Positions 2,064-23,989 of a stretch of 24,270 nucleotides of DNA are shown piece after piece (position 1 is the first letter of the stretch; the number at the start of each line of letters is the position of its first letter). The stretch spans positions 1 through 24,270 of IMG/VR virus record IMGVR_UViG_3300029309_000340, one strand, 5' to 3'. The stretch comes from a virus. Below the pieces are notes generated by a model, which was not told where the DNA came from, did no database searches, and saw only the letters and a program-made list of their open reading frames with translations. A program made the translations under genes and the position numbers.

Positions 2064-2160
2064 TGCTGACTCTATTACACATTTGTTCTATGGTCGTTTG
2101 TCTGATTATACTAATTGGTGCTATCTACATAATGATTGGGAAAAAGTCGAGGTAAAGTGA
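1921..2160 (+). CDS. Putative small lipoprotein (about 79 aa), non-ATG start
   Basis: There is no ATG. The start is TTG at 1921 (GGAG only 3 bases upstream) or TTG at 1927 (GGAG 9 bases upstream). The N-terminus reads Lys, a hydrophobic run VITFLLSIFL, then IHSC followed by TNQG. This resembles a signal-peptidase II lipobox, although His at -2 is atypical. The mature part is acidic and beta-like (NTVFVEIVDADSITHLFYG). The TGA stop overlaps the GTG of the next gene (GTGA), which supports this frame being real. Between membrane proteins it could be an outer-membrane spanin-type subunit (inference). The alternative is a frameshifted single gene with 1884-2063. Confidence 0.55.
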   Translation: MKLYIRVITFLLSIFLIHSCTNQGWVVANIPIGEEERFTNTVFVEIVDADSITHLFYGRLSDYTNWCYLHNDWEKVEVK

Positions 2161-2794: not shown

Positions 2795-2940
2795 TGGATA
2801 GTTTAAAAGTAACTGGACTGAGCACAAGCTTAGGTGTTGTATACTGGACAGATTTACTGTCTGGTGTTTTAATGTGTATAATGTTTGCAGTGCAAATTTA
2901 TTATTTGTATTTAAAAACCAAGAAAATAAAGGAAAATTAA
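2794..2940 (+). CDS. 48-aa single-pass membrane protein
   Basis: This is a short gene found by reading the gap. Its ATG overlaps the previous stop by one base (TAATG) and its TAA abuts the next ATG at 2941. The protein is MDSLKVTGLSTSLGVVYW..., with one hydrophobic span at about residues 20-43 and a basic tail (KTKKIKEN). Perfect packing between two genes and a clean hydrophobic/basic layout argue that it is real. Its function is unknown; it is probably part of the same membrane/lysis cluster. Confidence 0.75.
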   Translation: MDSLKVTGLSTSLGVVYWTDLLSGVLMCIMFAVQIYYLYLKTKKIKEN

Positions 2941-3168
2941 ATGGATATTAAGTCAATGTTAGTAAAGCTTGCCGAAGAGCAGGCAGATAAGATGCAAGAA
3001 GAAGCTTTGAAGCATTTAGCATCGGATGAGTTCACAAAAAATTTAGCTACAAAAATTAACGAGAAGGTAAATATACCTTGGATCAACGAAGAAAAAGAGC
3101 AGGAGCTTTTTGAGAAGTTGGTTGATGTAATGACAGATATGCTAGAAGGTGTATTTAAAGGTAAGTAA
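2941..3168 (+). CDS. Small helical protein (75 aa), unknown
   Basis: AAAGGA lies about 9 bases before the ATG. The protein is acidic and almost wholly helical (LVKLAEEQADKMQEEALKHL, then EEKEQELFEKLVDVMTDMLEGVF), with no membrane segment. The conserved-looking middle NEKVNIPWINEEKEQ is a short linker between two helices. It sits between the membrane-protein cluster and the large tail gene, whose ATG overlaps its stop. I do not recognise the family. Confidence 0.75.
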   Translation: MDIKSMLVKLAEEQADKMQEEALKHLASDEFTKNLATKINEKVNIPWINEEKEQELFEKLVDVMTDMLEGVFKGK

Positions 3169-3572
3169 TGCCTAAACAGATATACAAAATAAATGACTGG
3201 TCTGGTGGTATGAATAACCGTAAAGACCCTAGAGACTTGCCAGACAGGCAGTATCCGTTTATTAAGAATATGTCTATTGATGCATTGGGAAAGATAAAAA
3301 CTGCTGGTGGCCTATATAATCACATTGAAGACTCCGATGGTTCTACAAACTTAACTCAATACATTCCTTCTGTAAGCAATACAGTTTTAGGTGGCTTTGG
3401 TTTGTTTTATTTTGAGTCAGATCATAGTAAAGATGCAGATCAAACTATAACGGAAACCAAAAGCGGTACAGCATTGACTATTGGTACAAGTGACGGTAAC
3501 ATAGCTTTTGTTCAGGTGTCTACAAATCCAGACGGGAATACCCAAGCACCGGAGCAAGGAAGTGGCCTGTAA
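3168..3572 (+). CDS. N-terminal fragment of a large tail structural protein, ended by in-frame TAA
   Basis: The start MPKQIYKINDWSGGMNNRKDPRDLPDRQ is typical of large tail tube/nozzle-type proteins of marine podo-like phages (an N-terminal SGGMN/DPRD block, then 'IDALGKIKTAGG'). After 134 codons the frame stops at TAA (3570-3572). The same frame continues immediately with ATG at 3573 for 937 more codons. The expected product is one protein of about 1070 aa. The stop could be a point mutation (CAA to TAA is one base), a sequence error, a readthrough site or a true gene split. As a separate 134-aa protein it has no recognisable independent role. Confidence 0.7.
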   Translation: MPKQIYKINDWSGGMNNRKDPRDLPDRQYPFIKNMSIDALGKIKTAGGLYNHIEDSDGSTNLTQYIPSVSNTVLGGFGLFYFESDHSKDADQTITETKSGTALTIGTSDGNIAFVQVSTNPDGNTQAPEQGSGL

Positions 3573-6386: not shown

Positions 6387-7066
6387 TGGATAGAGAAACC
6401 AGAAGAATCCAAAACACAAAACAAGCCTCTGTAGAATTTCAAGGTAAGCCATCTCTAAATGGTATGGTAGAAGGGCAGATTGCTATTGAGAAAAAATCAA
6501 ATAGCCAGTTAGCAATATATAGAAAAAAGTTTGGACAGTTATGGAAATCGTACATGTCCAATAACGGTGATCAGTATGTAGATAGAACACTTAATGCTAA
6601 CACTTTAAAGTATTCACATAAATTTATAGATTATCGAACATTTATTCACAATTTTCCTGATAACATAGGAACAGATGTTACGTTTTTGCCTTGGCAGGGC
6701 ACTGGAGAGCAAGCTAACATGAATAATGCTACAAGTGCCTTTCTAACTCCTTACACTATAACCTGTCAAAAAATATTGTTTAGACCAGAATCCTTAGCGG
6801 CAGGGACAACAACAGCAGACATTACATTTACAATACATAGACAAGACGATGGAGATACAAATACAGATACAGTTGCTAGATTTACATATCAGCCTGAGCT
6901 TGTTAGCAATACCGTACTAACTATAAATGAATCTGACTTTAACAATTCTCCAAAAGTAGAGGCTGGAGCTAAAGTTGGTATAAGTATTGCGGCTAACCCT
7001 GATCCTGCTGGTGCTACTATAGACTATTATATTACATCAGTTTGGCGAGTAGAGGTGGAAATATGA
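6386..7066 (+). CDS. Tail-associated structural protein (226 aa)
   Basis: The ATG overlaps the preceding TAA by one base. Residues 15-65 (VEFQGKPSLNGMVEGQIAIEKKSNSQLAIYRKKFGQLWKSYMSN) form an attachment-type domain often seen at the start of short tail proteins: 'N-G-M-x-[ED]-G-Q-x-A-I' followed by 'LAIYRKKFG-LW'. From about 75 it is a beta sandwich (ITCQKILFRPESLAAGTTTADITFTIHRQDDG...DYYITSVWRVEVEI). It is translationally coupled to the large tail protein, so it is likely a tail appendage or head-tail component. The gap to the next gene is 33 bases. Confidence 0.72.
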   Translation: MDRETRRIQNTKQASVEFQGKPSLNGMVEGQIAIEKKSNSQLAIYRKKFGQLWKSYMSNNGDQYVDRTLNANTLKYSHKFIDYRTFIHNFPDNIGTDVTFLPWQGTGEQANMNNATSAFLTPYTITCQKILFRPESLAAGTTTADITFTIHRQDDGDTNTDTVARFTYQPELVSNTVLTINESDFNNSPKVEAGAKVGISIAANPDPAGATIDYYITSVWRVEVEI

Positions 7067-7099
7067 TAAAAACTTTATTAAATTCAAAGGAATTATACC

Positions 7100-8647
7100 A
7101 TGATTGAACATTCCTCAAAATCAAAAGGTTATTTACCTATGAAATCAGGCCCTAATATGATGGGCTTTGATATGGGTAAATCTGGTAGCTTAATGGAGAT
7201 GATGCAGAATGGTGGGCAACCTAGTCGTGGTGCGGCTATGCTTGCTCAGGCAACACAAAGACAAAGCGATATAAAAAAATTAGAAGATCAACAGAGAGCA
7301 GAAGCCAAAAGACAAAAACGTGGTGGTTTGTTTGGTAGTATTGGTGGTTTAGCTGGTGGATTGCTTGGTTCAGCCGCATTAGGTGCTCTTGGTATAAGCA
7401 CTGGTGGTTTAGGTTTGGGATTAGCCGCTGGTCTTGGAACCGCTTTAGGTAGGAGAGCAGGTGAAGGCATTGGTGCTGGTAAAACAAGAAAAGCAGACAC
7501 AGAAGGAACGGTATTTGCACAGCAGGATTTTAGAGATGTAGAACAAGCTAGCAGAGATTACACTAGAGGAATGGGTGAAAGAGCCATAGTATCCGGTTTA
7601 AAGGCAGGTCTTTCTGCTGGTTTAACTCCGGGTGGTGGTATATATGGAAAGGCAAAAAGTTTTGGAATAAGAAACATGCCAAGACAGGCATTTCAAAGAG
7701 TTGCTCCTGTTGCAACCGATGTACAAAATATAGTATCTACGCCTATGTCTGCTGACTTACCTAGTGCTATATCGGGAACAGAAGAAGCTTACTTGCAAAG
7801 TTTATCTGCAATGGATGCTTCTAACGTAGATAGCTTATCTGGTCTAATTGGTGGGGCTCAGGATTCTGCTCAGGCTTTTGCTAATAGGCCCCAAGGATTA
7901 GAGTTTTTAGGTGATTCTGCAATGGGTGTGCCATTAGAGCCTATAACATTTGCAGGAAGCTCTGGTGTAGATGCTTCAGATTCTAATCTTTTAGGCTTGG
8001 TTTATAGAAGTCAACAAGGCCCTTCTGAGTCTGGTGTTGGTTATAACAGAGGTGCTTTATTAAATGAATTGCTTTCTGCATCGCCATATCAAACCAATGT
8101 AGTCGCAGGTATGGAAGATGGTGGACTTATTGAATATCAGTACGGTGGAGGAGTTAGTGGCATACAAGGTATTTTACAGGATGCTGGTATTACCGCATCT
8201 CCAGAGCAACTAGCTTTATTTGAACAGTTTGACCCCAGTTCTTTAAATGAATTAGCATCTGGTTTACAAAGCAGTCTTCTTTCTGGAACTCAACAGTCAC
8301 AACAGCAACAAGCTGGTATGGGATTTGCTGGTTCTGGTGTGGTACAGCAACAACAGTCACAGCAAAGAGAAAGCCTTATGGGCCAACTTGAGTCTGCACA
8401 AGACAGAGCGGCTAGACAATTTGAGTCACAAACATTGGGAGAGGCGGCTAGCTTGATAAATCAAGGTGCAGAGTTTAGTGGCTTTACAGCTCCACCACCT
8501 ACAGTTTCAAGCTTACCAACGTCAGATCAAGGTGCTGTAACCTTTAATGGTGTTGGTTATGTTTGGGACAATGACTCTGGTCAGTACATTACTCAGGATC
8601 AATTTGAGCAAGGTATGAGTGAATATTATGATGATCTATATGATTAA
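7100..8647 (+). CDS. Gly-rich internal virion/ejection-type protein (515 aa)
   Basis: AAGGA lies 8 bases before the ATG. Residues 50-73 form a charged helix (RQSDIKKLEDQQRAEAKRQK). Residues 74-120 are very Gly/Ala/Leu-rich (GGLFGSIGGLAGGLLGSAALG...GLGLAAGLGTALG), like a membrane-inserting hairpin. About 120-330 is mixed; 385-440 is Gln/Ser-rich (SQQQQAGMGF...QQQQSQQRE). The C-terminus is acidic (YYDDLYD). A Gly-zipper hairpin in a mid-size protein just before a coiled-coil protein and a giant protein matches the gp14/gp15/gp16-like ejection block of T7-group phages in layout. No sequence homology to T7 gp14 is claimed. Confidence 0.68.
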   Translation: MIEHSSKSKGYLPMKSGPNMMGFDMGKSGSLMEMMQNGGQPSRGAAMLAQATQRQSDIKKLEDQQRAEAKRQKRGGLFGSIGGLAGGLLGSAALGALGISTGGLGLGLAAGLGTALGRRAGEGIGAGKTRKADTEGTVFAQQDFRDVEQASRDYTRGMGERAIVSGLKAGLSAGLTPGGGIYGKAKSFGIRNMPRQAFQRVAPVATDVQNIVSTPMSADLPSAISGTEEAYLQSLSAMDASNVDSLSGLIGGAQDSAQAFANRPQGLEFLGDSAMGVPLEPITFAGSSGVDASDSNLLGLVYRSQQGPSESGVGYNRGALLNELLSASPYQTNVVAGMEDGGLIEYQYGGGVSGIQGILQDAGITASPEQLALFEQFDPSSLNELASGLQSSLLSGTQQSQQQQAGMGFAGSGVVQQQQSQQRESLMGQLESAQDRAARQFESQTLGEAASLINQGAEFSGFTAPPPTVSSLPTSDQGAVTFNGVGYVWDNDSGQYITQDQFEQGMSEYYDDLYD

Positions 8648-8658
8648 GGACAATTACG

Positions 8659-9555
8659 ATGCCCGGACACACTAGAAGTATATATAGCAGAAGACAAAGG
8701 TTAGGCCCTACTAGGTTTGACAATCCCCTTGCAGACTTTTTAGATAGACTGCCAGATTATTTTAATCAGTATCAGCAAATGGAGCTTGCTCGTGACAGGC
8801 AAAGATTAGCAGATAAGAGATATAATGATCAGCAAGACCGTCAAAAAATGTTAGATCAGCAAAGAGAGGAGGATAGAGAGTATAGAAGAGAAATAGATTT
8901 TATAAATGCTGTTCCAGAAAGCCAAAGAGGGGCGGCTATGGCAAAGTCTTCTATTGAGAATATTAGTAGGGCTGGTGATGCTATATTAGAAAGTCAAAAT
9001 AAGTTTAATGAAATGCTCTATCCTCTTGACACGGAAAGTAGTGAATATGAAGAGAAGTTGAAGGGGGCTTTACAAAGTCCTAATCTTACGATTAATCAAA
9101 AAAAAATGGTTAATCAACAACTGAACAAGATACAAAGCAAAAGAAACTTTACAAACGCAAGGACACTTATTGATAATTTACAGGATAGTCCTGATAAAAT
9201 TGCTTTAGGTATTAGACTTGATTCTGGTGATCTTGATGGCGTGCTAAAAGAAATAAACAAAAGAGAGTCTAAGAAAAAAGAAGAACTGTCTCCTCCAGAG
9301 CAGTTTACTCAACAATTAATTAGTCAGCCTAATCAAATTGATAAGATAATAGAAAGCATAGATCAGGATTTAAACTCTGGATTAAGGAAAAGAAAGAACC
9401 TTCCACCATTAACTCCTGATCAAATTAAACAACGAATTGAATTAAGAAGGAATCTTGTTAATAGTAGGTTTGATTTAATTCAGCCTTTAATACAAGGATT
9501 TGCTCCTCCTGAAAGCACTATTGTTCAAGATAAATTTTTACCAGATTTTGACTAA
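8659..9555 (+). CDS. Coiled-coil virion protein (298 aa), probable internal/ejection component
   Basis: AAGGA lies about 8 bases upstream of the ATG. The N-terminus is basic (MPGHTRSIYSRRQRLGPTRF). Residues 35-80 are a very charged Gln/Arg/Asp helix (QYQQMELARDRQRLADKRYNDQQDRQKM...), and helical stretches continue to the end. There is no membrane segment. The middle position between the Gly-rich 515-aa and the 1715-aa proteins suggests a second ejection-block component (analogous to gp15 by order only). The stop is 2 bases before the next ATG. Confidence 0.68.
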   Translation: MPGHTRSIYSRRQRLGPTRFDNPLADFLDRLPDYFNQYQQMELARDRQRLADKRYNDQQDRQKMLDQQREEDREYRREIDFINAVPESQRGAAMAKSSIENISRAGDAILESQNKFNEMLYPLDTESSEYEEKLKGALQSPNLTINQKKMVNQQLNKIQSKRNFTNARTLIDNLQDSPDKIALGIRLDSGDLDGVLKEINKRESKKKEELSPPEQFTQQLISQPNQIDKIIESIDQDLNSGLRKRKNLPPLTPDQIKQRIELRRNLVNSRFDLIQPLIQGFAPPESTIVQDKFLPDFD

Positions 9556-9557
9556 AA

Positions 9558-12500
9558 ATGTCACAAAGGCATATAAAATCACTATATGATACTGCAATTA
9601 AGGAATACCCAGAGAACACAAACTTTGGAACTTTAGATGAATTTTATGAAAAGATACAAGACCCCGCAAAGAGTAAAATATTATATGATGGCTTAACTCG
9701 AAAAGGCTATACAAACTTAGGTAGTTACGAATCTTTTCAAACAAAAATATCCAGTAAAGCTCCAGAGATAACAGCAGATTCTGTTCTTGTTATCCCTGAA
9801 GAGGTTGAAGCCCCAACAGAAACAAACCTTCAAAAAATAATGAGAGCACTAGAGGAAGGTCGTGACAATCCTCAGTTTATTATGAGTGCAATGAAGGATA
9901 ATGATCCTATAAAAAGGCTTAATGAATCCATATCAAAGATGCCTAAGTTTGCAGGGTTGATTCCAACAGATCAAATAACTGGCCTGCCTAGAGTACAACC
10001 ACCACCTACAGAATTTAGAAAGAAGTATGATGCATTAGATGATGATGGTAAGTATGCCTTATATAAGTCTGAAGTTGTTAAAAGAAAAAGAGAAAAAAAC
10101 ATTAGTGAAAGAGATGCATGGAAAGAGGTGTATAAAGAGACAGGCAAAACACCTCCGGGTCTTTTAGACCTAGCCTTAGAAAAATCTATTGCGGGTGGCG
10201 TATTAAGATTGTTTGGTAGGGATATAGGTTTTGACATTAAAGACTATCCAGAGAGAGAAGAAACGCTTTCCTTAGATGCCTTAGAAGATTTTGCAACGGG
10301 TGCTTTATCTTTGGTGATGCCAGTAGATGCTTTGTTGTTTGCTTTTGGCGGTGGTGTTGGTGCTAGAGCAGGATTAAAAGGTGTTAACGCTGTTAAGAGT
10401 CAGGTAAAGCAAATAGGCAAGTTTGCTGATGAAGTTGCTTTAAAAATATCTAAGTCAAAAAAGATACCATTGCCACAGGCAAGGGTAATTACAAAAAATG
10501 CAGTTAGTAGGATTACAGGTGGTGCTGGAGGGTTTGGTGCTTTTGATGCCGGTAGAAACATAGTAGACCAGATTGAGCTCACAGGAGAGGTTGACGTTGT
10601 AGAAGCTACTAAAGCTTTTGCAAAGGGTGTTGTAACTGGAGGAACAGTAGGTGTTCTTGGTGCGGCTGGTTCTTATGCTGGTGGAAAACCTGCTGAATTT
10701 GTTTCTGAAGTTTTTGGTCTTGGAACTGTAGGGCCTTTATTGGAGGGTGAGCTAAAGATTACTGGAGAAGAAGGTGTTATTGAAAGTAAGGAAGCAAGAG
10801 ATAGATATTTTCGTGGTTTGGTAGATGCCTCTGGAACTATCGTTGGTTTGCGACTACTAAAACAATTGAAGCCAAGGCAACAAAAAGTTATTCAAGAAAG
10901 AATAGCAGAAGAAATAAGAGTCCGTGCTGAAGAAACAGGTCAGTCTGAAGTAAAGATTGCTAACGAAATACAAGGTGAATTAAAAACTGCTGTTCAGCTA
11001 GCAATGGAAGGGAAGTCTCCAGAGAAAATAAGCAACATAGAAAAGAGAGAATCTTTTGGAAAGAATAGAGAAAGACTTAAAGAAACAGTTGAGAGAACTT
11101 TTGATAGGGTAAATAAAGAGGTAAAAGAATTAGCAAAAGATATGGATGCTTTGGAAAAGGCAGGGACTGAACAGTCTATAATGGATCAATATCAGAACAG
11201 AATAGACCGTAAAATAGAGTTTCAAAATATGTTAGCTGAGGATTTAAATATAATTACACCTAGACAAGTTAGAGAAGACGGAGTTGCCAACCCTCAGAAT
11301 GTGCAGACTGGGCCACTTCTTTTGCCTCCTAAATATGAATCTCCTATAAAAATACAAACTGTTTACAGGACTAAAGAAGATGCTAAGACAATTTTAGCAG
11401 AGCTTGACAGGAAAGCAATAGAGGCAGAAAAAAGATCGAAAGAACAAGAGATTGCAAAAGATAGGGCTTTACAAAAAGGGTATGAGCCTTTATTTCCTTC
11501 AACTAATATTCCTAAAATTTTTGGTGCAGAAAGATTGCTGGTAAATCCGTCCTCTCCTAGATCAACTGAGAATTTATCTATTGCCTTTCATCCTCCAAAG
11601 CTAGGTAAAATGCAGAATGCAGAGTTGCTTAAAAAGCAAGCCGCAGAAAAAAATAAATCAAGCAGAGTACCTGTTCAACAATTACCACCTGAAAAAAAGT
11701 TAGAAGGATACCAGTTACAAAAAGAATTTAGTGACTTAACAGAGACTCTTAGGGTAAATGAAAATAGGCTTTCTTCTGAAAACTTAACACAAAGAGAAAA
11801 GTTAAACATTGAAAGGTCAAACGAAAGAGTCAAAGATTTAATTTCAGAAGCTCAAGAAAGTGCAAATTCAAAAGGTATTGAATTGCAAATTTTTATGGGT
11901 ATCCCTACTCCTAAAATATTAAAAGATTTATTTGGATCATCTAAGAACAAACCAAAGAGTTTATTGGCTCCTGATATAAATAAAAAATATGAAAATGCTA
12001 TAAAAAGATTAAATGAAAAGTTACCTGAAGAAACTCCTCAAATCGATCCCAAGCAAAAACCAGAGTTTGTATCAGAAGCTAAATACAGAAATAACATTAT
12101 AGACCCAACATTTTTTGCCACTGATATGGTGAACAGAATTCGATTTAGCGGAGGACAAACAGCAACAAGGATATCTGATCTAGCTAGGCAAGCAATAGAC
12201 ATTAAGAAAACAGTAAGTGGTCAACTGTCAGAAGTCGTTTTTCCTGCACAAAAGATCATGGGTTCATCTCCTTTCTCAAAAGACGGTAGAGCGGTTTTTA
12301 ATTTATCTGAACTTAAAAAAGTAAATATAAATGGTCAGGAAGTGTATCAAAACAAAATGCTTTCTGGTATAGAGGGTATGGATGTTTTTAAGTACAATAA
12401 AAATGAAATGAAAATAATAGAGCTTGCTAGGGATGTTATTGAAGCTAGGGGCAAGCAAATGGAAAGAGCTGGGTTGGTACAGCAAAAGCCAGATGGTTCA

Positions 12501-14705
12501 ATAGAACCTTTTAAAGTCTTGGGAAGAAATATAGCACCAAGAATAATGAGCCCTGAATTTTATAGTATACTTGAATTACCAGTAAGTCATCCTCATTTTA
12601 AAATATTAATTAAGGAGTGGGCAAAGGCAAATCCCGGCAATTCATATGAAGACATAAAGGCGTACTTTGAATCTCAGGCAAAAAACTTTAAAGGAGAAAG
12701 GGGTCAGGGTGAAGCAGGTTACCCAACCAGAACAACCCAAGCAGAACATAGCAGGATATGGAGTAATGTCCCTCATGCAATAAAAATTGAAGGTGAAGTT
12801 GTTCCAATGGTTGAACACAGACCTTTTCAATACATTAGTAGGTTAGCTGAAACAGGATCTGCTAGAATTGGAGTTGTTAAAACATTTGGTCAAGAGCTCA
12901 ATAATACTAGTGTCGTTGAGGATTTAAAACTTCAATTTGAAAGAGAGGGTGGTAATCCTCAATTAGTACATGACTTAGTAAAATCTATTAGCGGTGTTCC
13001 TGTTGAGCCTCCTTTAATTGTTGGCAGAAATTATGCCTACTCCAACATGGCAAGAGCTCAAAGAGGACTTGGTATTGGTGTTGATTTTATGAAGAACTCT
13101 GCACTTTCAATTTCTTTTTTTACGAATACATTTGAACCCCTTGGAAACGTAAGAAAACATGCCGGGATGCCGGGAATGTTGAAATCGATATTTAATATAA
13201 CCACTAATCCAAAAGCTGTTACAGAATTTTTAAGGTTGCAAGGTGCTATAACATCAGAAGTAAGAAACTTTTCTATAGATAGGAGTAGACCTTTTGAGTC
13301 TTTAGGTAATGCGGTATCAGATTTTCAAAGAAGGTTATTTGGCTTTCAATATGCAAATGAGTTTCAAGAGGTATTAGCGGCTCAAGTTTACAAGGACAAA
13401 ATAAATAATAAATTTAAACAAGGGAAAGGAACTTCAAAAGATGCTTTATTGCTTAGAGAATTAGATTTTACAAGAGATCAAGCTGAGGCAATAATAAAAG
13501 GAACAGCACCTCAAGAGCTATATGATGCCGTAATTAGAACAGCCGCCTCTAAGCTTACAGGTGGTGCTCAAGCTAGAGGGGAGCAGTCTAGATTGGAGCA
13601 AAATAAATATTATAAAGCAGGTATTAAGTTTGATCAATACGCACAGACAAAACTTAGATCTCTTGTTAGAAGTATGCTTACTTATAAAGAAGCTATTAAA
13701 GAGGGTGCTAAGGAAGGAGATTATAAGAAGTGGGTTGATGCAAACAGATTAATGGCTAGTGAAATATTAGGAACTGCAATATCTGGTATGACCACTCAAA
13801 TTTTGCTATCATTAATTTATGGAGGTACAGATAATTTAAGAATAAAATTTAATGAAATAACAGGTGAAGAGCCTGTAGATGTAGACCTACCCGTTATTGG
13901 TAAAGTTCCAATACCTCAACTAGAAACTCAACAAGTAGAGGTTCCCGTTATAGGTGAAACTACATTGCCAACTGGCAGGTCTTTAAAAACATTAGCTGAT
14001 TTTGCTGTAGAATCTTATGTCTATTCTGCTTTTGCCGGTGTTTATGGCAGTCTTTTGCAATCAACGTCAGAAGGTAAATTAATGCAAAATCCTTTAGAGT
14101 TGTCTTTTCCTGTTCAGGTTTTAGAGGAAGGGATAAAAGCTTATAAAGGAGAAAAAGGAAGATATGCTTATAAAGAAGCAGATGAAAGATTTTATGAGGC
14201 AATTAAAAGATTTTTTCCTGTTAATAGATTTGCAAGAACAGTAGCAGTTGCTACAGGATTTGGAAATCCACAAGCACAAAAAAACGACAACGCTATTAGG
14301 GCTTATTACAGATGGAAGTTTAAAAATAAATACGGTGGCAGGTATAGCGGTAACTTAGATGAAGATATTAAAAATTTTAGAAAAAATATGTCTAGTGCTT
14401 ATGAAGTAATAAAAAACAGTAAAGACCCCCTAGGAACTGATGCCGAAATAGCTAATGACTTTGTAGAAAAAGCCTTGAATGTCAAGGGAAAAAGTCAGAG
14501 CAGTGCGATATCATCTATAAGGGCTAGAATGTTTCTAAGTAAATCAAAAATAGCACCGGGAAAAGATTTTGAAACTGAAGAAGAAAGAAGAGAAGATTTA
14601 AAAAGAACTATAGGAATACAGGCTTACGAAGTATTAGAAGCCCACGACAGAAGGCTAGAAGATTATATAGAATACGATATTAAAACAATGTTTAAAGATT
14701 ATTAA
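9558..14705 (+). CDS. Giant internal virion protein (1715 aa), gp16-like by size and position
   Basis: The start at 9558 has no clear Shine-Dalgarno but lies 2 bases after the previous stop, so it is probably coupled. Residues 8-65 hold two copies of a short module: LYD, then 'GTLDEFYEKIQD' and 'GSYESFQTKISS'. This module recurs at the start of very large phage proteins. Residues about 246-266 (ATGALSLVMPVDALLFAFGGG), 320-332 and 355-376 are Gly-rich hydrophobic patches. A long charged helical region fills 380-800. A last hydrophobic patch lies near 1400-1420 (GTAISGMTTQILLSLIYGG), and the C-terminus is Lys/Arg/Glu-rich. It is larger than T7 gp16 (about 1300 aa). I see no convincing lytic transglycosylase motif. 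It ends in a 4-base overlap with the opposing gene. Confidence 0.72.
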   Translation: MSQRHIKSLYDTAIKEYPENTNFGTLDEFYEKIQDPAKSKILYDGLTRKGYTNLGSYESFQTKISSKAPEITADSVLVIPEEVEAPTETNLQKIMRALEEGRDNPQFIMSAMKDNDPIKRLNESISKMPKFAGLIPTDQITGLPRVQPPPTEFRKKYDALDDDGKYALYKSEVVKRKREKNISERDAWKEVYKETGKTPPGLLDLALEKSIAGGVLRLFGRDIGFDIKDYPEREETLSLDALEDFATGALSLVMPVDALLFAFGGGVGARAGLKGVNAVKSQVKQIGKFADEVALKISKSKKIPLPQARVITKNAVSRITGGAGGFGAFDAGRNIVDQIELTGEVDVVEATKAFAKGVVTGGTVGVLGAAGSYAGGKPAEFVSEVFGLGTVGPLLEGELKITGEEGVIESKEARDRYFRGLVDASGTIVGLRLLKQLKPRQQKVIQERIAEEIRVRAEETGQSEVKIANEIQGELKTAVQLAMEGKSPEKISNIEKRESFGKNRERLKETVERTFDRVNKEVKELAKDMDALEKAGTEQSIMDQYQNRIDRKIEFQNMLAEDLNIITPRQVREDGVANPQNVQTGPLLLPPKYESPIKIQTVYRTKEDAKTILAELDRKAIEAEKRSKEQEIAKDRALQKGYEPLFPSTNIPKIFGAERLLVNPSSPRSTENLSIAFHPPKLGKMQNAELLKKQAAEKNKSSRVPVQQLPPEKKLEGYQLQKEFSDLTETLRVNENRLSSENLTQREKLNIERSNERVKDLISEAQESANSKGIELQIFMGIPTPKILKDLFGSSKNKPKSLLAPDINKKYENAIKRLNEKLPEETPQIDPKQKPEFVSEAKYRNNIIDPTFFATDMVNRIRFSGGQTATRISDLARQAIDIKKTVSGQLSEVVFPAQKIMGSSPFSKDGRAVFNLSELKKVNINGQEVYQNKMLSGIEGMDVFKYNKNEMKIIELARDVIEARGKQMERAGLVQQKPDGSIEPFKVLGRNIAPRIMSPEFYSILELPVSHPHFKILIKEWAKANPGNSYEDIKAYFESQAKNFKGERGQGEAGYPTRTTQAEHSRIWSNVPHAIKIEGEVVPMVEHRPFQYISRLAETGSARIGVVKTFGQELNNTSVVEDLKLQFEREGGNPQLVHDLVKSISGVPVEPPLIVGRNYAYSNMARAQRGLGIGVDFMKNSALSISFFTNTFEPLGNVRKHAGMPGMLKSIFNITTNPKAVTEFLRLQGAITSEVRNFSIDRSRPFESLGNAVSDFQRRLFGFQYANEFQEVLAAQVYKDKINNKFKQGKGTSKDALLLRELDFTRDQAEAIIKGTAPQELYDAVIRTAASKLTGGAQARGEQSRLEQNKYYKAGIKFDQYAQTKLRSLVRSMLTYKEAIKEGAKEGDYKKWVDANRLMASEILGTAISGMTTQILLSLIYGGTDNLRIKFNEITGEEPVDVDLPVIGKVPIPQLETQQVEVPVIGETTLPTGRSLKTLADFAVESYVYSAFAGVYGSLLQSTSEGKLMQNPLELSFPVQVLEEGIKAYKGEKGRYAYKEADERFYEAIKRFFPVNRFARTVAVATGFGNPQAQKNDNAIRAYYRWKFKNKYGGRYSGNLDEDIKNFRKNMSSAYEVIKNSKDPLGTDAEIANDFVEKALNVKGKSQSSAISSIRARMFLSKSKIAPGKDFETEEERREDLKRTIGIQAYEVLEAHDRRLEDYIEYDIKTMFKDY

Positions 14706-19045: not shown

Positions 19046-19564
19046 TTATGTAACGCATCGTTTACTGATTTGTTCCCGTTTTTTATTATATTTTTTTACA
19101 ATATCTTGTATGTTCTTCATGTAGTCAAATTGCTTATGGGTCTTTAAGTGATGGCAGTTCCTACATCTTATCTTGCACTTCTGTATTTCCTTCTCTATGG
19201 TTTCCCATTTGTATCCTGCTCTAACAAGGCTACCAACTCCTTCGGTTGGTCTTAGCCTCCCTCTCTTCTTGATTCCCTTAACATGATCAAACTCCAGAAG
19301 TCGATGGTCGTTCTCACCACAATCTACACAGCCATGAATAAAGTACTCCATGAATATCTTCTCATAGTTCTCTTTTGTTACACGAGCCCTTCTTTCCCTG
19401 ACCTGCTGTATCCTGTGTTGCCTATGAGATTCATACCACGTATCGTTGTGATACTTCTTCTGACACACCTTACAGGAGTATTGTCTACCATCGGGTTTAG
19501 CACGATTGATATAAAACTCCTTACGGGGTTTCTCTTCTTTGCATGTGGCACATCTCTTCAACAT
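19046..19564 (-). CDS. HNH endonuclease with N-terminal zinc finger (172 aa)
   Basis: Residues C5-x2-C8 and C31-x2-C34 (RCATCKEEKPRKEFY ... YSCKVCQKKYH) form a first zinc module. The HNH core follows: C79-x2-C82 (GCVDCGENDHRLLEFDHV, D93-H94), then C134-x2-C137-H138 (IRCRNCHHLKTHKQ). This belongs to a well-known group of phage and bacterial HNH proteins with 'LEFDHV-G-K ... EI-KC-I-C-NCH'. It cleaves DNA; a free-standing homing endonuclease or a packaging/host-DNA nuclease are both possible. The ATG lacks a good ribosome site. An 11-bp hairpin with a 3-base bulge (19227-19258) lies within the gene. Confidence 0.85.
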   Translation of the reverse strand: MLKRCATCKEEKPRKEFYINRAKPDGRQYSCKVCQKKYHNDTWYESHRQHRIQQVRERRARVTKENYEKIFMEYFIHGCVDCGENDHRLLEFDHVKGIKKRGRLRPTEGVGSLVRAGYKWETIEKEIQKCKIRCRNCHHLKTHKQFDYMKNIQDIVKKYNKKREQISKRCVT

Positions 19565-20231: not shown

Positions 20232-20251
20232 GGGGCGGGTTGCCCCGCCCC
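20232..20251 (-). repeat. Perfect 8-bp GC intercistronic hairpin
   Basis: GGGGCGGG (20232-20239) pairs perfectly with CCCGCCCC (20244-20251) around the loop TTGC. It begins 8 bases after the stop of the gene at 20260. On the - strand it is followed by TATAAAAAGGAG, so it lacks a U-tract and is probably not a standard terminator. An RNase-blocking or processing stem between two sub-operons is more likely. Confidence 0.7.
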
Positions 20252-20259: not shown

Positions 20260-20505
20260 TTACGCTACCTGATCTGACTTTAACCAGTCAATCATCTCTC
20301 TGTATCTTTTCCTAATAACCTCATCTACAAACACCTTAACATAAGGCTTCTTATCGTATATCTCTTCTGACGGCACTACCATACACTCCGCACTAGATAG
20401 TCCTTGATGATACAACATGTATTCCAACCATTCTATTACATCTTGTTTAGACTCAAACAAAGATTGTTTTTTATCATTCTTTCTTGTTGTCATAGGTAAT
20501 TTCAT
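20260..20505 (-). CDS. Hypothetical protein (81 aa), first gene after promoter copy C
   Basis: AAAGGAG lies 6 bases before the ATG, about 40 bases downstream of the predicted start of transcription from the module at 20545-20581. Polar N-terminus (TTRKNDKKQSLFESKQ), then helix-strand-helix (DVIEWLEYMLYHQGLSSAECMVVPSEEIYDKKPYVKVFVDEVIRKRYREMIDWL). The strand pair reads like a small alpha/beta fold. No motif is recognised. Confidence 0.68.
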   Translation of the reverse strand: MKLPMTTRKNDKKQSLFESKQDVIEWLEYMLYHQGLSSAECMVVPSEEIYDKKPYVKVFVDEVIRKRYREMIDWLKSDQVA

Positions 20506-20544: not shown

Positions 20545-20581
20545 TTACTTATTAAACGCACCAAGTTTCAAAAAGTTTCAA
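20545..20581 (-). promoter_or_regulatory. Promoter-like 37-bp module, copy C
   Basis: On the - strand it runs from TTGAAAC (20581) to AATAAGTAA (ending at 20545). TTGAAA acts as a -35 box and TTTAAT as a -10 box, 19 bases apart. The layout and length match copies at 22478-22514 and 23812-23848. TGAAACTT is directly repeated with a 10-base period at the upstream end, a possible operator. It sits in the gap between the gene ending at 20583 and the gene starting at 20505. Confidence 0.62.
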
Positions 20582-20582
20582 A

Positions 20583-20876
20583 TTAATTTTTCACGTCAAA
20601 GATATGGTAGACCTCAACATGCGTATTGCAATCATAATTTGAGCAGGTAAAGTTAGATACGATACCTTCGCTTTGTTCGTCTTCATACACCTCTTGGACA
20701 TCGTGATCGCCACCCCATATTAACTCTGACTTACATTGCCAACAGCGGAACAATTTGCAATCGTTTTCATCCTGAGCTTTGATAACATCCTTGAGTCTCT
20801 TGATCTTCTTATCCCGCCTTTCCACCATAGCTTCATACTGTAGTAGTTCTAGCTGTAACTCCTTATATTTATTCAT
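20583..20876 (-). CDS. Coiled-coil plus zinc-ribbon protein (97 aa)
   Basis: The ATG makes an ATGA overlap with the 34-aa membrane gene. Residues 1-35 form a heptad helix (YKELQLELLQYEAMVERRDKKIKRLKDVI). C45-x2-C48 (FRCWQCKSELIWGGDHD) and C78-x4-C83 (FTCSNYDCNTHVEVYHI) make a ribbon. A coil plus C-terminal ribbon is a recurring build in small phage proteins. It is probably dimeric and binds a nucleic acid or a protein; the target is unknown. Confidence 0.72.
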   Translation of the reverse strand: MNKYKELQLELLQYEAMVERRDKKIKRLKDVIKAQDENDCKLFRCWQCKSELIWGGDHDVQEVYEDEQSEGIVSNFTCSNYDCNTHVEVYHIFDVKN

Positions 20877-20977
20877 TTACGAAACCTCTTCTTCTTTTCA
20901 CGCTTCACTTCATCTATAGAAACTACAAACGCTGTGCATAAAATTATGATGAATAGCAAGATAACTAACTCTGTCAC
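20873..20977 (-). CDS. 34-aa single-pass membrane protein (GTG start)
   Basis: GTG (20975-20977) with GGAGG 5 bases upstream, in a GTGA overlap with the preceding gene. Protein: MTELVILLFIIILCTAFVVS as one membrane span, then a very basic tail with KREKKKRFRK. The frame stays open upstream to an ATG at 21082, but that part is the out-of-frame shadow of the 43-aa gene. The short start is preferred because of its ribosome site and overlap. Confidence 0.75.
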   Translation of the reverse strand: MTELVILLFIIILCTAFVVSIDEVKREKKKRFRK

Positions 20978-21105
20978 TTTCCCCTCCAGTCTTGGATTGT
21001 GTAAACTACTAAAGTTACCAAAAACATACCCATTGAGAAAGCTACCAAACCCATACCCAATATGAGAAAGTTTACTATCCATTCCGCTAAGTCTATCAGT
21101 ATCAT
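20974..21105 (-). CDS. 43-aa membrane protein
   Basis: AAGGAGG lies 4 bases before the ATG, one of the strongest sites in the window, and the ATG makes an ATGA overlap with the upstream gene. Protein: MILIDLAEWIVNFLILGMG..., with a hydrophobic region at about residues 8-36 and the polar tail TIQDWRGK. It is the second of three consecutive short membrane proteins. Function unknown; a membrane role in takeover, exclusion or lysis timing is only a guess. Confidence 0.78.
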   Translation of the reverse strand: MILIDLAEWIVNFLILGMGLVAFSMGMFLVTLVVYTIQDWRGK

Positions 21106-21245
21106 CTGTCCTCCTTCAGTTTCTTAATCTCAGTTCTTATATACCATCTCATCAAGTAGTGGTAGATAAGATGTAGCACCGCAAGGTATACCACCATAAA
21201 AACATCAAACCCATTCTCTGATAAAGACTGTAACCAGTGTATCAT
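21102..21245 (-). CDS. 47-aa single-pass membrane protein
   Basis: GGAGG lies 6 bases before the ATG. Protein: MIHWLQSLSENGFDVFMVVY..., with one hydrophobic span at about 13-31 followed by a basic tail (MRWYIRTEIKKLKEDR). The TGA overlaps the next ATG. It is first in a coupled set of three membrane microproteins. No family is recognised. Confidence 0.77.
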   Translation of the reverse strand: MIHWLQSLSENGFDVFMVVYLAVLHLIYHYLMRWYIRTEIKKLKEDR

Positions 21246-21246
21246 G

Positions 21247-21417
21247 TTATTCCTCCACCTGCTTTGCTCTTTTTAATACCCATGTTTCCCAAGCTATTGT
21301 TACCAGTTCTTCATTCAATCCATACTCACTAGCAATATGTTCTAGTTCTCTTTCAATAGCTTCGTCTAAATCAGGATGAACTAACTCAGCTAACTTGTCT
21401 AACTCATAACCTTTCAT
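21247..21417 (-). CDS. 56-aa acidic helical protein
   Basis: The ATG makes an ATGA overlap with the 37-aa gene. Protein: MKGYELDKLAELVHPDLDEA..., then ELEHIASEYGLNEELVTIAWETWVLKRAKQ. Two or three helices, no Cys, no membrane segment. The end carries the GGAGG of the next gene. Function unknown; the helices and charge suggest a small protein-binding factor. Confidence 0.75.
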   Translation of the reverse strand: MKGYELDKLAELVHPDLDEAIERELEHIASEYGLNEELVTIAWETWVLKRAKQVEE

Positions 21418-21527
21418 CTTTTACTTCTCCTTTTGTACTTACGCTTTTTCTTGGGAGTTACAGAAACTGGTTTGTCTCCAAGAATTGTTTTTATTACCAG
21501 TTCTATTGCTTTTGTAAAGCTATTCAT
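21414..21527 (-). CDS. 37-aa basic microprotein
   Basis: AAGGAG lies upstream of the ATG (21525-21527), which overlaps the 3' end of the Nmad1-like gene by 8 bases. The protein begins MNSFTKAIELVIKTILGDKP as a possible amphipathic helix. It ends with a strongly basic tail (PKKKRKYKRRSKR) suited to nucleic-acid or membrane-surface binding. The tail may partly reflect the AAGGAG of the next gene being encoded as K-R-R. Confidence 0.68.
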   Translation of the reverse strand: MNSFTKAIELVIKTILGDKPVSVTPKKKRKYKRRSKR

Positions 21528-21852
21528 TTACTTCTCCTTTTTGTTTATATGTTCTTATCATACAGACTAATAACAAAAGATAGTTAATGATGTCCATAAT
21601 CCTACCCTCTATACTTTCCGAGTATTCTTTTCCATCTTTAAAATAGTTAAAAACACTACTTGTGTGCTTCAGTAAATATACAGAAAGTACCTTCATTGGT
21701 GATAGCCCTAATGTTTTTGCTATGTTCTCGAAGTTCCATAAAACATTTGAGTTATGGTGTCCTTCTGTATACTCAATACGTTTGTCGTCTGAAAGTTTGA
21801 GAGTTTTCTTGAGGAAGTCCTCTCTCATAAATTGATATTCTTTTGAGTTCAT
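21520..21852 (-). CDS. DUF1599/Nmad1-like protein (110 aa)
   Basis: AGGAG lies 6 bases before the ATG, which makes an ATGA overlap with the upstream gene. The pattern DDKRIEYTEGHHNSNVLWNFENIAKTLGLSPMKVLSVYLLKH..., then EGRIMDIINYLLLL matches the DUF1599 family as I recall it ('nucleotide modification associated domain 1'). That is an all-helical protein seen in phages and linked by context to base modification. Key visible residues are N35-N40-F41, K62-H63, E82-x-R84-x2-D87-x2-N90-Y91. A MazG-like nucleotide pocket is possible. No partner hydroxylase or transferase lies in the window. Confidence 0.65.
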   Translation of the reverse strand: MNSKEYQFMREDFLKKTLKLSDDKRIEYTEGHHNSNVLWNFENIAKTLGLSPMKVLSVYLLKHTSSVFNYFKDGKEYSESIEGRIMDIINYLLLLVCMIRTYKQKGEVNE

Positions 21853-22043
21853 AAGTTTCTCCTAGTTTCAAAGTATAAATTAATTTCATCTCTGTACAGT
21901 TTGCTTGTAGAAATCGGATCATTTATGAAACTTGCTATCACTTCACAAAAGTCTTTTTTCTTTAGTTTGCAGTTGTCAATATCTAGTTCAAAGAACATAA
22001 CTACATCCTCCCTAGTTATCTTTTTTGTCATTGGATACGGCAT
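21849..22043 (-). CDS. Small protein (64 aa), unknown
   Basis: AAAGGAG lies 5 bases before the ATG at 22043, which favours that start over the internal ATG four codons on. It overlaps the upstream gene by 32 bases. Sequence: ITREDVVMFFELDIDNCKLKKKDFCEVIASFIND, helix-rich with two Cys, then LYFETRRNL. The TGA overlaps the start of the Nmad1-like gene. No family is recognised. Confidence 0.65.
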   Translation of the reverse strand: MPYPMTKKITREDVVMFFELDIDNCKLKKKDFCEVIASFINDPISTSKLYRDEINLYFETRRNL

Positions 22044-22251
22044 GTTTACTCCTTTTTCTATTTAGCGTATCTGTAAATGAATTATAGGCATTCTCTGTTG
22101 TATTGCCCCATAAGATAGCTTCTCTTTCTACCCATTCTTTACTATTCCATTCTTTCTTTTTATCACGCTCTAGTTTTAACTTTAGTTCTTCCAAGTATCT
22201 TTTTGCACTATCGTAACCCATGTCAGTTACCAGACCTTTTATTTTACCCAT
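22012..22251 (-). CDS. Hypothetical protein (79 aa)
   Basis: TAATG overlap with the upstream gene, with AAGGAG just upstream. Highly charged helix in the first half (YDSAKRYLEELKLKLERDKKKEW), Trp-containing middle (NSKEWVEREAILWGNTTENAY), basic tail (NRKRSKHAVSNDKKD). No membrane segment, no motif recognised. Confidence 0.65.
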   Translation of the reverse strand: MGKIKGLVTDMGYDSAKRYLEELKLKLERDKKKEWNSKEWVEREAILWGNTTENAYNSFTDTLNRKRSKHAVSNDKKDN

Positions 22252-22457
22252 TACTTCTCCTTATGCCCCCATTGTTTTTTGATGTATTTCTTGATCTCAC
22301 TTTTAAATATGATGTTTTTTGTATACCCTTTTTTATGACTCCAATCATCATTACAAATATGATCGTTGCACATATCGTCATCTAAATCTTCTATAAATTG
22401 TCCCTCTCCCCAAAAGTCATATTCACAATCTTCACAAACCATTTTTACTTCTATCAT
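22251..22457 (-). CDS. Cys-rich small protein (68 aa), possible zinc site; first gene after promoter copy B
   Basis: AAGGAG lies upstream of the ATG, only about 20 bases downstream of the predicted transcription start of the 22478-22514 module. C8-x2-C11 (MVCEDCEYDFWGEGQ) and C30-x4-C35 (DMCNDHICNDD) give a C-x2-C/C-x4-C set like that of the 97-aa protein at 20583. The middle is acidic (EDLDDD) and the C-terminus is basic (KSEIKKYIKKQWGHKEK). Function unknown. Confidence 0.68.
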   Translation of the reverse strand: MIEVKMVCEDCEYDFWGEGQFIEDLDDDMCNDHICNDDWSHKKGYTKNIIFKSEIKKYIKKQWGHKEK

Positions 22458-22477
22458 TATATATCTCCTTTTTTTAT

Positions 22478-22514
22478 TTACTTATATAACTACACACTTA
22501 ATTAAAAGTTCCAA
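22478..22514 (-). promoter_or_regulatory. Promoter-like 37-bp module, copy B
   Basis: On the - strand it runs from TTGGAAC (22514) to ATAAGTAA (ending at 22478). TTGGAA acts as -35 and TTATAT as -10, 19 bases apart, with GTAG before the -10 as in copy A. It sits in the 63-base gap between the genes at 22521 and 22457. The transcript leader would be about 20 bases and begins close to the ribosome site. Confidence 0.65.
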
Positions 22515-22520
22515 TTTATT

Positions 22521-23027
22521 TTAATAATGTACATCTGCGGGTACTACAAAAACCTTTTGATCTCTTTCTTCTTCTGTAATATCTATACCGCCCCACTTGG
22601 TTAATGCATTGTTTAAATGGTTCCTAGACTTTATCCCTTCACCATCAGTATCATACATCCACACTCCTGAACCTTGATACATTCCAATAGAATAATAGTG
22701 GTGCTGAAGATGATTTTCTTTCAGAGATTGTATGATTTCTAGATCACTCTTATTTTCTGTAATCTTGCGTATCTCCTGTAAGTGATACCTCATATCCCTT
22801 AATGTGTTTCTCCACCCGTCTACCACCAATTTACGCCCTTCTGCGGTGCTTATCTCGGATACGGGTTGCAACCTATCGCCCCAATACGAAGTACCACCCT
22901 CATCAAAAGTATCGTAGTAGTCAAATGGATACTGCCCTTCGCATAGGTTATCCATGTTATTTCTAGCTTTGGAAATCGCCTCACTTCCAGAATTAGCGTA
23001 TACAATATTTCTTATTATCATGTGCAT
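22521..23027 (-). CDS. Hypothetical phage protein (168 aa)
   Basis: AAGGAG lies 9 bases before the ATG. Start MHMIIRNIVYANSGSEAISKARNNMDNL is a strand plus helix with the 'A-x-S-x-x-E-A' helix start seen in phage small proteins. Middle: YPFDYYDTFDEGGTSYWGDRLQPV, then a long helix (LRDMRYHLQEIRKITENKSDLEIIQSL). The C-terminus holds two aromatic strands (YYSIGMYQGSGVWMYDTDGEGIKS) and ends VFVVPADVHY. No catalytic pattern is recognised. It is one of the longer early genes and transcribed from copy A. Confidence 0.7.
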   Translation of the reverse strand: MHMIIRNIVYANSGSEAISKARNNMDNLCEGQYPFDYYDTFDEGGTSYWGDRLQPVSEISTAEGRKLVVDGWRNTLRDMRYHLQEIRKITENKSDLEIIQSLKENHLQHHYYSIGMYQGSGVWMYDTDGEGIKSRNHLNNALTKWGGIDITEEERDQKVFVVPADVHY

Positions 23028-23028
23028 T

Positions 23029-23211
23029 TTATTTGCTCCTTTTATTTAGTTTCTTACACAATTCTTTTGCTTCTTGTAAGTCTGTAAAATCGTATGACAT
23101 TGTTCTTTCGTTCTTGTTATCTGTACCATCATAAGGCTCACCATCAGAAACTTGGTATTCTTTTTGCTTTCCATCTTCTGTTAAACCTTCTACTATTATC
23201 CACTTCTGCAT
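23029..23211 (-). CDS. Small protein (60 aa), unknown
   Basis: TAATG overlap with the upstream gene. A strand-turn-strand-helix build: MQKWIIVEGLTEDGKQKEYQV..., a charged Asp/Asn/Arg loop, MSYDFTDLQEAKELCKKLNKRSK. A 'DL-x-EA' helix start like its neighbours suggests a small common fold used repeatedly in this arm. The stop is 1 base from the next gene. Confidence 0.65.
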   Translation of the reverse strand: MQKWIIVEGLTEDGKQKEYQVSDGEPYDGTDNKNERTMSYDFTDLQEAKELCKKLNKRSK

Positions 23212-23510
23212 TACTCTTCCTCCTCATCATGTATCTCATCCCAGAGATGTTTAGCCACCTCATAGAAATTGACTTGTTTTATAGAACTGTTTACCATGTC
23301 GCTTATAAAGCCATGTTCGTATTCATGTGAGTTCAATGCATTATCAGCCATTTCGATTGCCCACTCTTCTAATCTTTTGGATAAGTCGTATTCATTTTGA
23401 CAATCAAACGCCATTTTTAAAGCGTAACCATAGTCTGCTTCTGTGTTTGTGATCCACAAATTAAAATTCCAAGTTTCATAATTTGTCCATCCGTTGTATT
23501 CATTAGTCAT
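23211..23510 (-). CDS. 'GWTNYETW' family phage protein (99 aa; DUF7249-like)
   Basis: Residues 6-22 read NGWTNYETWNFNLWITN, the signature of a small family spread over phages and plasmids (recalled as DUF7249). The rest is helical: ADYGYALKMAFDC, LSKRLEEWAIEMADNAL, then NFYEVAKHLWDEIHDEEEE. The acidic tail fits proteins that bind host factors. Biochemical function is unknown. Overlaps its upstream neighbour by 8 bases and its downstream neighbour by 1. Confidence 0.78.
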   Translation of the reverse strand: MTNEYNGWTNYETWNFNLWITNTEADYGYALKMAFDCQNEYDLSKRLEEWAIEMADNALNSHEYEHGFISDMVNSSIKQVNFYEVAKHLWDEIHDEEEE

Positions 23511-23718
23511 TTTCAGAACCCTCCTCTATTTCCCAACTTAACCAATTTATAAACATTCTCTGCACTTGGATAGAAGACCTACCTATTACATTTACATTTT
23601 TCATTTCTGTTTTATTGACTTGAGGATTTTGAACCATAGTGAATTTCATATCATTATTTAATGATCTCCACCAATGCAATGCTTTTTTCCTCGCATCATT
23701 TACGATTATATTGCTCAT
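23503..23718 (-). CDS. Small phage protein (71 aa), 'ALHWWRSL' type
   Basis: AAAAGGAG lies 11 bases before the ATG. Sequence: NDARKKALHWWRSLNNDMKFTMVQNPQVN, a helix followed by a strand, then SSIQVQRMFINWLSWEIEEGSEND. The 'A-x-x-WW-x-S-L' helix is a motif I associate with small uncharacterised phage proteins. It is the first gene after promoter copy A and the structured leader at 23743-23808. Confidence 0.68.
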   Translation of the reverse strand: MSNIIVNDARKKALHWWRSLNNDMKFTMVQNPQVNKTEMKNVNVIGRSSIQVQRMFINWLSWEIEEGSEND

Positions 23719-23742
23719 TTATTACTGCTCCTTTTATTTTTT

Positions 23743-23808
23743 GGCGAGGGTACTAAGATTATCAATTTAATGATTAGGGTAATTACTCCCTCTATCGTTC
23801 TCCTCGCC
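23743..23808 (-). promoter_or_regulatory. Structured leader starting at a predicted transcript 5' end
   Basis: A perfect 7-bp GC stem pairs GGCGAGG (23743-23749) with CCTCGCC (23802-23808). Inside, on the - strand, AGGG/CCCT and ATCA/TGAT can form two small hairpins, giving a three-way junction. Copy A of the promoter module predicts transcription to start near 23811, 1-4 bases before the stem. The last base of the stem is 24 bases before the ATG of the 71-aa gene. On the - strand the stem is followed by AAAAAAT, so it is not a terminator. Confidence 0.6.
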
Positions 23809-23811
23809 TAT

Positions 23812-23848
23812 TTACTTATTATACTACGCTATTTGTTAAATGTTCCAA
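23812..23848 (-). promoter_or_regulatory. Promoter-like 37-bp module, copy A
   Basis: On the - strand it runs from TTGGAAC (23848) to AATAAGTAA (ending at 23812). TTGGAA acts as -35, TATAAT is a perfect sigma70-type -10, spacer 19 bases. It overlaps the last 30 bases of the 56-aa gene. It would drive the genes at 23718 and downstream, at least as far as the gap at 22521. Confidence 0.7.
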
Positions 23849-23989
23849 ATTATTTTTTAATTCTTTTATATCGTTATTAAATGCTTTTAAAGTTTCTTTT
23901 TCATCTAACTTCAACACACCATTTTTATTCTTTTTAAAAATTAATGTTACCTCAAAATCCTCTGTTACTGTGTAATATGTTTCTTTCAT
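23819..23989 (-). CDS. 56-aa small protein, unknown
   Basis: Read directly from the gap. The ATG makes an ATGA overlap with the upstream gene, with GGGGAAAAA just before it. Protein: MKETYYTVTEDFEVTLIFKKN..., strand-rich first half, then a helix (KAFNNDIKELKNNLEHLTNSVV) with coil-like leucines. No family is recognised. Promoter copy A lies over its last codons. Confidence 0.73.
   Translation of the reverse strand: MKETYYTVTEDFEVTLIFKKNKNGVLKLDEKETLKAFNNDIKELKNNLEHLTNSVV

What the first reader, a model, noticed from the sequence alone, without database searches (positions are those of the whole stretch)
20545..23848. Three copies of a 37-bp promoter module with fixed geometry in the early arm
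The three main - strand gaps (23812-23848, 22478-22514, 20545-20581) each hold the same layout: TTGRAAC, then exactly the same distance to a TATAAT/TTATAT/TTTAAT box, then a shared TAAGTAA end. Total length is 37 in all three. The -35/-10 spacer is 19 bases, longer than the 17-base optimum, and the bases after the -10 are better conserved than parts of the -10. That suggests a specific host sigma/activator preference or a phage factor. These modules would split the early arm into sub-operons.
Basis: partly seen in the sequence, partly recalled or inferred. Interest (0 to 1): 0.7.

Follow-up and report, generated by a model that had tools for sequence, protein, structure and literature searches.

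The report
Phage early promoters resembling stress-sigma promoters
A family of uncultured phages drives its early genes from many copies of a promoter that looks not like the ordinary bacterial one but like those read by stress-response (ECF) sigma factors, and it matches a site conserved next to such a sigma gene in the marine bacteria that may be its host.

Summary
In detail: three 37-bp minus-strand modules at the stated coordinates. With a matrix that excludes their own orthologues they score 35-40; the next window site scores 9.6 and the best of 300 shuffles 19.8. One copy (23812-23848) is not in a gap but overlaps the end of ORF 23819-23989.

Related IMG/VR contigs carry the same module family, almost only on the early strand (223 sites against 4 above score 15). 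The conserved letters are GGAAC-N16/17-[CA]GT[AT]TA plus a discriminator. TTG, A-11 and T-7, which a sigma-70 promoter should keep, are weaker. This is the layout of group-4 (ECF) sigma promoters.

The only close relative found in GTDB genomes lies in a Marinimicrobia MAG. In 27 of 28 orthologous loci of that family the same motif (GGAACTTT-N13-[GA]GTTATA) sits about 187 nt before an RpoE/SigW-like ECF sigma gene, with codons frozen at DNA level. Window copy 22478-22514 matches this pattern exactly.

Best reading: early promoters read by host RNA polymerase with an ECF sigma, splitting the early arm into sub-operons. No experiment exists, and the host link rests on one bin.

The parts
23812..23848 (-). 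Module copy 1, TTGGAACATTTAACAAATAGCGTAGTATAATAAGTAA: GGAAC 23842-23846, N16, AGTATAAT 23818-23825, AAGTAA 23812-23817; predicted start about 23811. Overlaps the 3' end of ORF 23819-23989.
   Evidence: score 39.8 with orthologue-free matrix; same class in relatives L009, L010, L074
22478..22514 (-). Module copy 2, TTGGAACTTTTAATTAAGTGTGTAGTTATATAAGTAA: GGAAC 22508-22512, N16, AGTTATAT 22484-22491; predicted start about 22477. Exact match to the pattern conserved upstream of the Marinimicrobia ECF sigma gene.
   Evidence: score 35.4
20545..20581 (-). Module copy 3, TTGAAACTTTTTGAAACTTGGTGCGTTTAATAAGTAA: GAAAC 20575-20579 (GGAAC in the relatives with this class), N16, CGTTTAAT 20551-20558; predicted start about 20544.
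   Evidence: score 35.1; relatives
23503..23718 (-). 71-aa ORF, first gene after copy 1 (leader about 93 nt)
   Evidence: inference
22251..22457 (-). 68-aa ORF, first gene after copy 2 (leader about 20 nt with AAAGGAG)
   Evidence: inference
20260..20505 (-). 81-aa ORF, first gene after copy 3 (leader about 39 nt with AAAGGAG)
   Evidence: inference
23743..23808 (-). 66-nt element closed by a 7-bp stem GGCGAGG/CCTCGCC, beginning 3 nt after the predicted start of copy 1; role unknown
   Evidence: fold -19.3 kcal/mol, one further copy in L084
19042..19078 (-). Weak candidate CGGGAAC-N16-CGTTACAT, inside the 3' end of the HNH ORF 19046-19564; may be only coding sequence
   Evidence: score 4.9, below shuffles; also in close relatives

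Best explanation
The modules are transcription promoters of the phage's early arm. They are recognised by host RNA polymerase carrying a group-4 (ECF) sigma factor, through GGAAC at -35 and [CA]GT[AT]TA at -10, 16-17 nt apart, followed by a conserved discriminator (AAGTAA) and a start at about the next base. Several copies per genome split the early arm into sub-operons, and copies come and go with gene cassettes. The likeliest reader is the RpoE/SigW-like ECF sigma of Marinimicrobia, whose conserved upstream site has the same letters and spacing; the phage would mimic that site. Shown by sequence: the motif family, its geometry, strand bias and copy number, and the frozen site before the host sigma gene. 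Inferred: promoter activity, the sigma class, the host, autoregulation of the sigma gene, and the start site.
For: Three window copies far above chance. In relatives 141 distinct sites on the early strand and 0 on the other; second set 223 early, 4 opposite, 0 reversed control above score 15. Leave-one-column-out conservation: GGAAC 1.00/.94/.93/.94/1.00, [A/C] G.75 T.96 in the -10, T-7 only .36. GGAAC to [AC]GT[AT][AT]A spacing peaks at 16 (40 clusters) and 17 (13) on the early strand only. Ribosome-binding sites follow the module. Structured RNAs in relatives begin two bases after the base following the module. Literature: EcfG GGAAC-N16-CGTT with near-invariant AAC and flexible -10 (PMC7083833); SigT GGAAC-N16-CGTT near -35 of starts (PMC4287350); RpoE GGAACTT and SigW ATTGAAACCTTT (PMC8103513). 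Host: exonuclease relative in Marinimicrobia MAG UBA7303 with ECF sigmas; the motif about 187 nt before the RpoE/SigW-like gene in 27 of 28 loci, 19 of 20 exact family matches at that gene, no reversed-control match, 14 distinct exact matches on phage early strands and none opposite.
Against: No expression or binding data. The host link is one binned 9.6-kb contig, which itself carries no strong module. GGAAC-N16/17-CGTW is not enriched genome-wide in the MAG (26 against 38 control) and GGAAC is not enriched in 74 upstream regions, so no wider ECF regulon was seen. The GTATAA variant, common in the phages, has no exact match in 33 family genomes. The host site lies inside a holA-like reading frame, so part of its conservation is protein constraint. 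The -10 keeps some TATAA resemblance (A-9 .78, A-8 .77).
Confidence: 0.6

Rival explanations
1. Promoters for the host's primary (sigma-70 type) holoenzyme with an unusual -35 and a 19-bp spacer, perhaps because the host's primary sigma has its own preferences.
For: TTG precedes or overlaps the -35 in many copies; the -10 often reads TATAAT, TATAAC or TATAGT; early promoters of most phages that rely on host polymerase are of this type (general knowledge).
Against: C-31 and both Gs are near-invariant while T-37 (.71), T-36 (.62), A-11 (.68) and T-7 (.36) are not; TGGGAAC, ATGGAAC and CGGGAAC copies break TTG but keep GGAAC; no TTGACA/TATAAT spacing peak on either strand.
Confidence: 0.2
2. Promoters that need a phage-encoded sigma factor or activator that binds TTGGAAC.
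For: Motif is confined to phage early arms in high copy; most early ORFs have no known function.
Against: No sigma, polymerase or activator domain in 80 ORFs of two relatives and the window or in large late ORFs; sites of the same type also stand before the first early gene of relatives, which must be read before phage proteins exist; the host carries the same motif.
Confidence: 0.13
3. Not promoters but conserved linkers or recombination sites for exchange of gene cassettes.
For: Copies sit at gene borders and come and go with neighbouring genes: after the 168-aa gene some relatives have the module, others go straight to GGAGG and another gene.
Against: A linker should conserve one continuous stretch; here two boxes and their spacing are conserved and the spacer is free. 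Strict orientation, ribosome-binding sites downstream and RNAs beginning at the predicted start point to promoters.
Confidence: 0.05

Closest known systems
ECF (group-4) sigma promoters: alphaproteobacterial EcfG/SigT (GGAAC-N16-CGTT), E. coli RpoE (GGAACTT), B. subtilis SigW (ATTGAAACCTTT at -35)
   Same: GGAAC or GAAAC -35 with invariant AAC, 16-17 nt gap, short flexible CGT-like -10.
   Different: In phage early arms rather than stress regulons; -10 often extends to GTATAA, a variant with no exact match in 33 genomes of the candidate host family; candidate host is not an alphaproteobacterium.
Site upstream of the RpoE/SigW-like sigma gene of Marinimicrobia (described here, not previously characterised to my knowledge)
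   Same: TGGAACTTT-N14-GTTATA, identical letters and gap in window copy 2.
   Different: Once per genome, inside a holA-like ORF; no TAAGTAA discriminator.
PeSL elements (promoter early stem-loop) of T4-like phages (from memory; no paper found in the library)
   Same: Repeated early promoters at gene-cassette borders in a phage that uses host RNA polymerase.
   Different: Those are sigma-70 promoters joined to a stem-loop; here the motif is ECF-like and most copies have no stem-loop.

Membership tests
ECF (group-4) sigma promoter | -35 GGAAC with near-invariant AAC | tested here: met
   left-out columns 1.00/.94/.93/.94/1.00; window copy 3 has GAAAC
ECF (group-4) sigma promoter | 16-17 nt to a short CGT-like -10 | tested here: met
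   peaks at 16 and 17, early strand only; [A/C] .89, G .75, T .96
ECF (group-4) sigma promoter | transcript starts about 35 nt after the first G of GGAAC | tested here: inconclusive
   only indirect, from structured RNAs beginning at the expected place in relatives
ECF (group-4) sigma promoter | recognised by an ECF holoenzyme | not testable with these tools
   needs in vitro transcription
EcfG general stress regulon promoter | alphaproteobacterial host with EcfG | tested here: inconclusive
   only host clue is a Marinimicrobia MAG with RpoE/SigW-like and FecI-like sigmas
Sigma-70 promoter | TTGACA at -35, 16-18 nt spacer | tested here: not met
   TTGGAA with 19 nt; no TTGACA spacing peak
Sigma-70 promoter | -10 with conserved A-11 and T-7 | tested here: not met
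   A-11 .68, T-7 .36 in the larger set.67 and .63 in the first set
PeSL of T4-like phages | promoter joined to a stem-loop, repeated and shuffled | tested here: not met
   repeated and shuffled, but in the window only copy 1 is followed by a stem-loop

The most novel reading that the evidence does not exclude
These phages tie their early genes to the host's envelope-stress ECF sigma: attack on the envelope frees the sigma from its anti-sigma, and the phage's many copies of the sigma's own promoter turn that alarm into early phage transcription.
Probability: 0.25. Interest if true: 0.88.

Novelty: new variant of a known kind. Interest (0 to 1): 0.68.

Why it matters
Phages that rely on host RNA polymerase are normally thought to start with the primary sigma factor. 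A phage family whose early arm is built on ECF-type promoters would mean that infection depends on, or senses, a host stress pathway. It also gives a sequence-only clue to host identity for uncultured marine phages, and a testable target motif for an ECF sigma of Marinimicrobia, a phylum with little experimental access.

Tried and rejected
Isolate relatives: none by nucleotide search, nor with five of the seven proteins tried; terminase and HNH nuclease hit only distant homologues. Portal protein in GTDB genomes: none. A 34-bp short variant suspected at first turned out to be an ungapped relative with the same TTGGAA-N19-TATAAG register. Host housekeeping promoter search in 294 kb of the MAG: no clear consensus. 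ECF motif genome-wide in the MAG: not enriched. Canonical sigma-70 spacing in the phage arms: no peak. Rfam: no family for the associated RNAs. ARAGORN calls on the associated RNA contradict each other (Leu, Ser, Arg), so it is not an ordinary tRNA. Literature on phages using ECF sigma: nothing relevant found; PeSL papers not in the library. A first opposite-strand comparison was spoiled by wrongly oriented loci and was redone.

Full report
WHAT IS THERE. The window is a whole 24,270-base IMG/VR virus record. Genes on the plus strand (32-14705, probably structural) and on the minus strand (Cas4-like exonuclease, RusA-like resolvase, HNH nuclease and many small ORFs) converge at 14702. 'Early' for the minus arm is an inference from gene content. 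The three modules lie on the minus strand at the stated coordinates and are 37 nt long. Copy 1 overlaps the last codons of ORF 23819-23989; copies 2 and 3 start 6 and 1 nt after a stop codon. Each is followed by an ORF with a ribosome-binding site after a leader of about 93, 20 and 39 nt.

CHANCE. With a matrix trained only on relatives, after removal of every site within 5 mismatches of the window copies, the three score 39.8, 35.4 and 35.1. Nothing else in the window exceeds 9.6, and the maximum of 300 dinucleotide shuffles is 19.8.

RELATIVES. The 168-aa ORF upstream of copy 2 found 33 related loci and the exonuclease found 80 (best 80 of 140 kept), down to 54% identity. Many are the same contigs, so the two sets are not independent. 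The modules recur, oriented with the early genes: 141 distinct sites on the early strand and none on the other in the first set. In the second set, above score 15, there are 223 early, 4 opposite and 0 in reversed controls. Classes differ in the spacer, and the module comes and goes at a given gene border.

WHAT IS CONSERVED. To limit circularity each column was left out of the matrix in turn. Conserved: G-35 1.00, G-34 .94, A-33 .93, A-32 .94, C-31 1.00, then Ts; a free spacer; A/C-14, G-13 .75, T-12 .96, A-11 .68, T-10 .71, A-9 .78, A-8 .77; T-7 only .36; T-3 .76, A-2 .89 (one search is similar except for T-7.63). The gap from GGAAC to [AC]GT[AT][AT]A peaks sharply at 16 and 17 on the early strand only. 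A smaller count at 25 probably comes from the AAGTAA discriminator. TTGACA/TATAAT pairs show no peak. A sigma-70 promoter would keep TTG, A-11 and T-7. An ECF promoter keeps GGAAC and a short CGT-like -10 at 16-17 nt: EcfG GGAAC-N16-CGTT with nearly invariant AAC and -10 variants TGTT, CATT and GGTT (PMC7083833); Caulobacter SigT, the same motif, near -35 of starts (PMC4287350); RpoE GGAACTT and SigW ATTGAAACCTTT (PMC8103513). Copy 3 (GAAAC-N16-CGTT; GGAAC in the relatives of its class) differs from the EcfG consensus by one base.

START SITE. In relatives the module is followed directly by a structured RNA whose first paired base is the third base after the module. This fits a start at about the first base after AAGTAA. 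It is indirect, because such RNAs may be processed.

WHO READS IT. No sigma, RNA polymerase or activator domain was found in 80 ORFs of two relatives and the window, nor in the large late ORFs. The only close relative in GTDB genomes is a 9.6-kb phage contig binned in MAG Candidatus Marinimicrobia UBA7303. That MAG encodes two ECF sigmas, one RpoE/SigW-like with a possible anti-sigma ORF after it (anti-sigma by position only), one FecI-like with a FecR-like neighbour.

THE HOST SITE. Upstream of the RpoE/SigW-like gene, at -187 or -188 from its start, 26 of 28 orthologous loci match GGAAC-N16/17-NGT. A 27th has the same stretch but with a different count or ambiguous bases, and the last (L251) is cut off before the GGAAC position. 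The consensus is GGAACTTT-N13-[GA]GTTATAT. The site lies in a holA-like reading frame (naming from memory of the protein), so protein constraint had to be weighed. GGA is used 27/27, ACT 25/27, GGT 20/20, and where Gly became Ser it is AGT, keeping GTTA. Nine other conserved codons of at least 4-fold degeneracy have top shares of only 0.26-0.73. All three motif codons exceed all nine, a rank chance of 1 in 220, ignoring shared ancestry. In a sister group Phe became Leu while GGAACTTT was kept. Of 20 exact matches to TGGAACTTTN{13,14}GTTATA reported in the family, 19 by my count lie at this gene, with no reversed-control match. Phylum-wide there are 26 matches; those of the family and of the sister group checked lie at this gene with one exception (L298 was too short to show the gene). 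In an outgroup phylum 3 matches equal the control. Phage early strands hold 14 distinct exact matches, the opposite strand none, with the same gap; window copy 2 is one.

LIMITS. The host link is one bin, and that contig itself carries no strong module. The GTATAA variant has no exact match in the 33 genomes. Genome-wide GGAAC-N16/17-CGTW is not enriched in the MAG. No expression data exist. My confidence: promoters about 0.93; ECF-type about 0.7-0.75; the Marinimicrobia ECF specifically about 0.5.

Noticed in passing
L002, L011, L012, L028, L032, L036, L037, L068, L070 and others; more diverse: L092, L093, L094, L096, L107: A 148-230-nt structured RNA with tRNA-like ends (7-bp acceptor-like stem, T-arm) and a conserved core AAGGTGAAAAGTAAATCTATGG...GAGCCTTG, often directly after a module. 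Acceptor and T-stem pairs differ between viruses yet stay paired (the extraction required pairing, so covariation is partly by construction). Not in Rfam, not an ordinary tRNA by ARAGORN.
   Followed up: partly
window 23743-23808 (minus strand); also L084: A different 66-nt element with a 7-bp closing stem GGCGAGG/CCTCGCC just after module copy 1.
   Followed up: partly
window 20232-20251; L061, L078: A GC-rich hairpin GGGGCGGG-TTGC-CCCGCCCC downstream of the 81-aa ORF; in relatives a similar hairpin stands directly before a module.
   Followed up: no
G007 (L074) about 8400-9060, and homologous stretches in G004 and G010: The divergent region before the first early gene of relatives holds long TATAGTATATA-type low-complexity DNA, a GGAAC-N17-CGTATA site and a long untranslated leader.
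   Followed up: no
L093 about 9040-9130, upstream of the tRNA-like RNA: A second stretch resembling the RNA core (GGTGGAAAGTAGATCCAGATAAGTG) stands in tandem before it.
   Followed up: no
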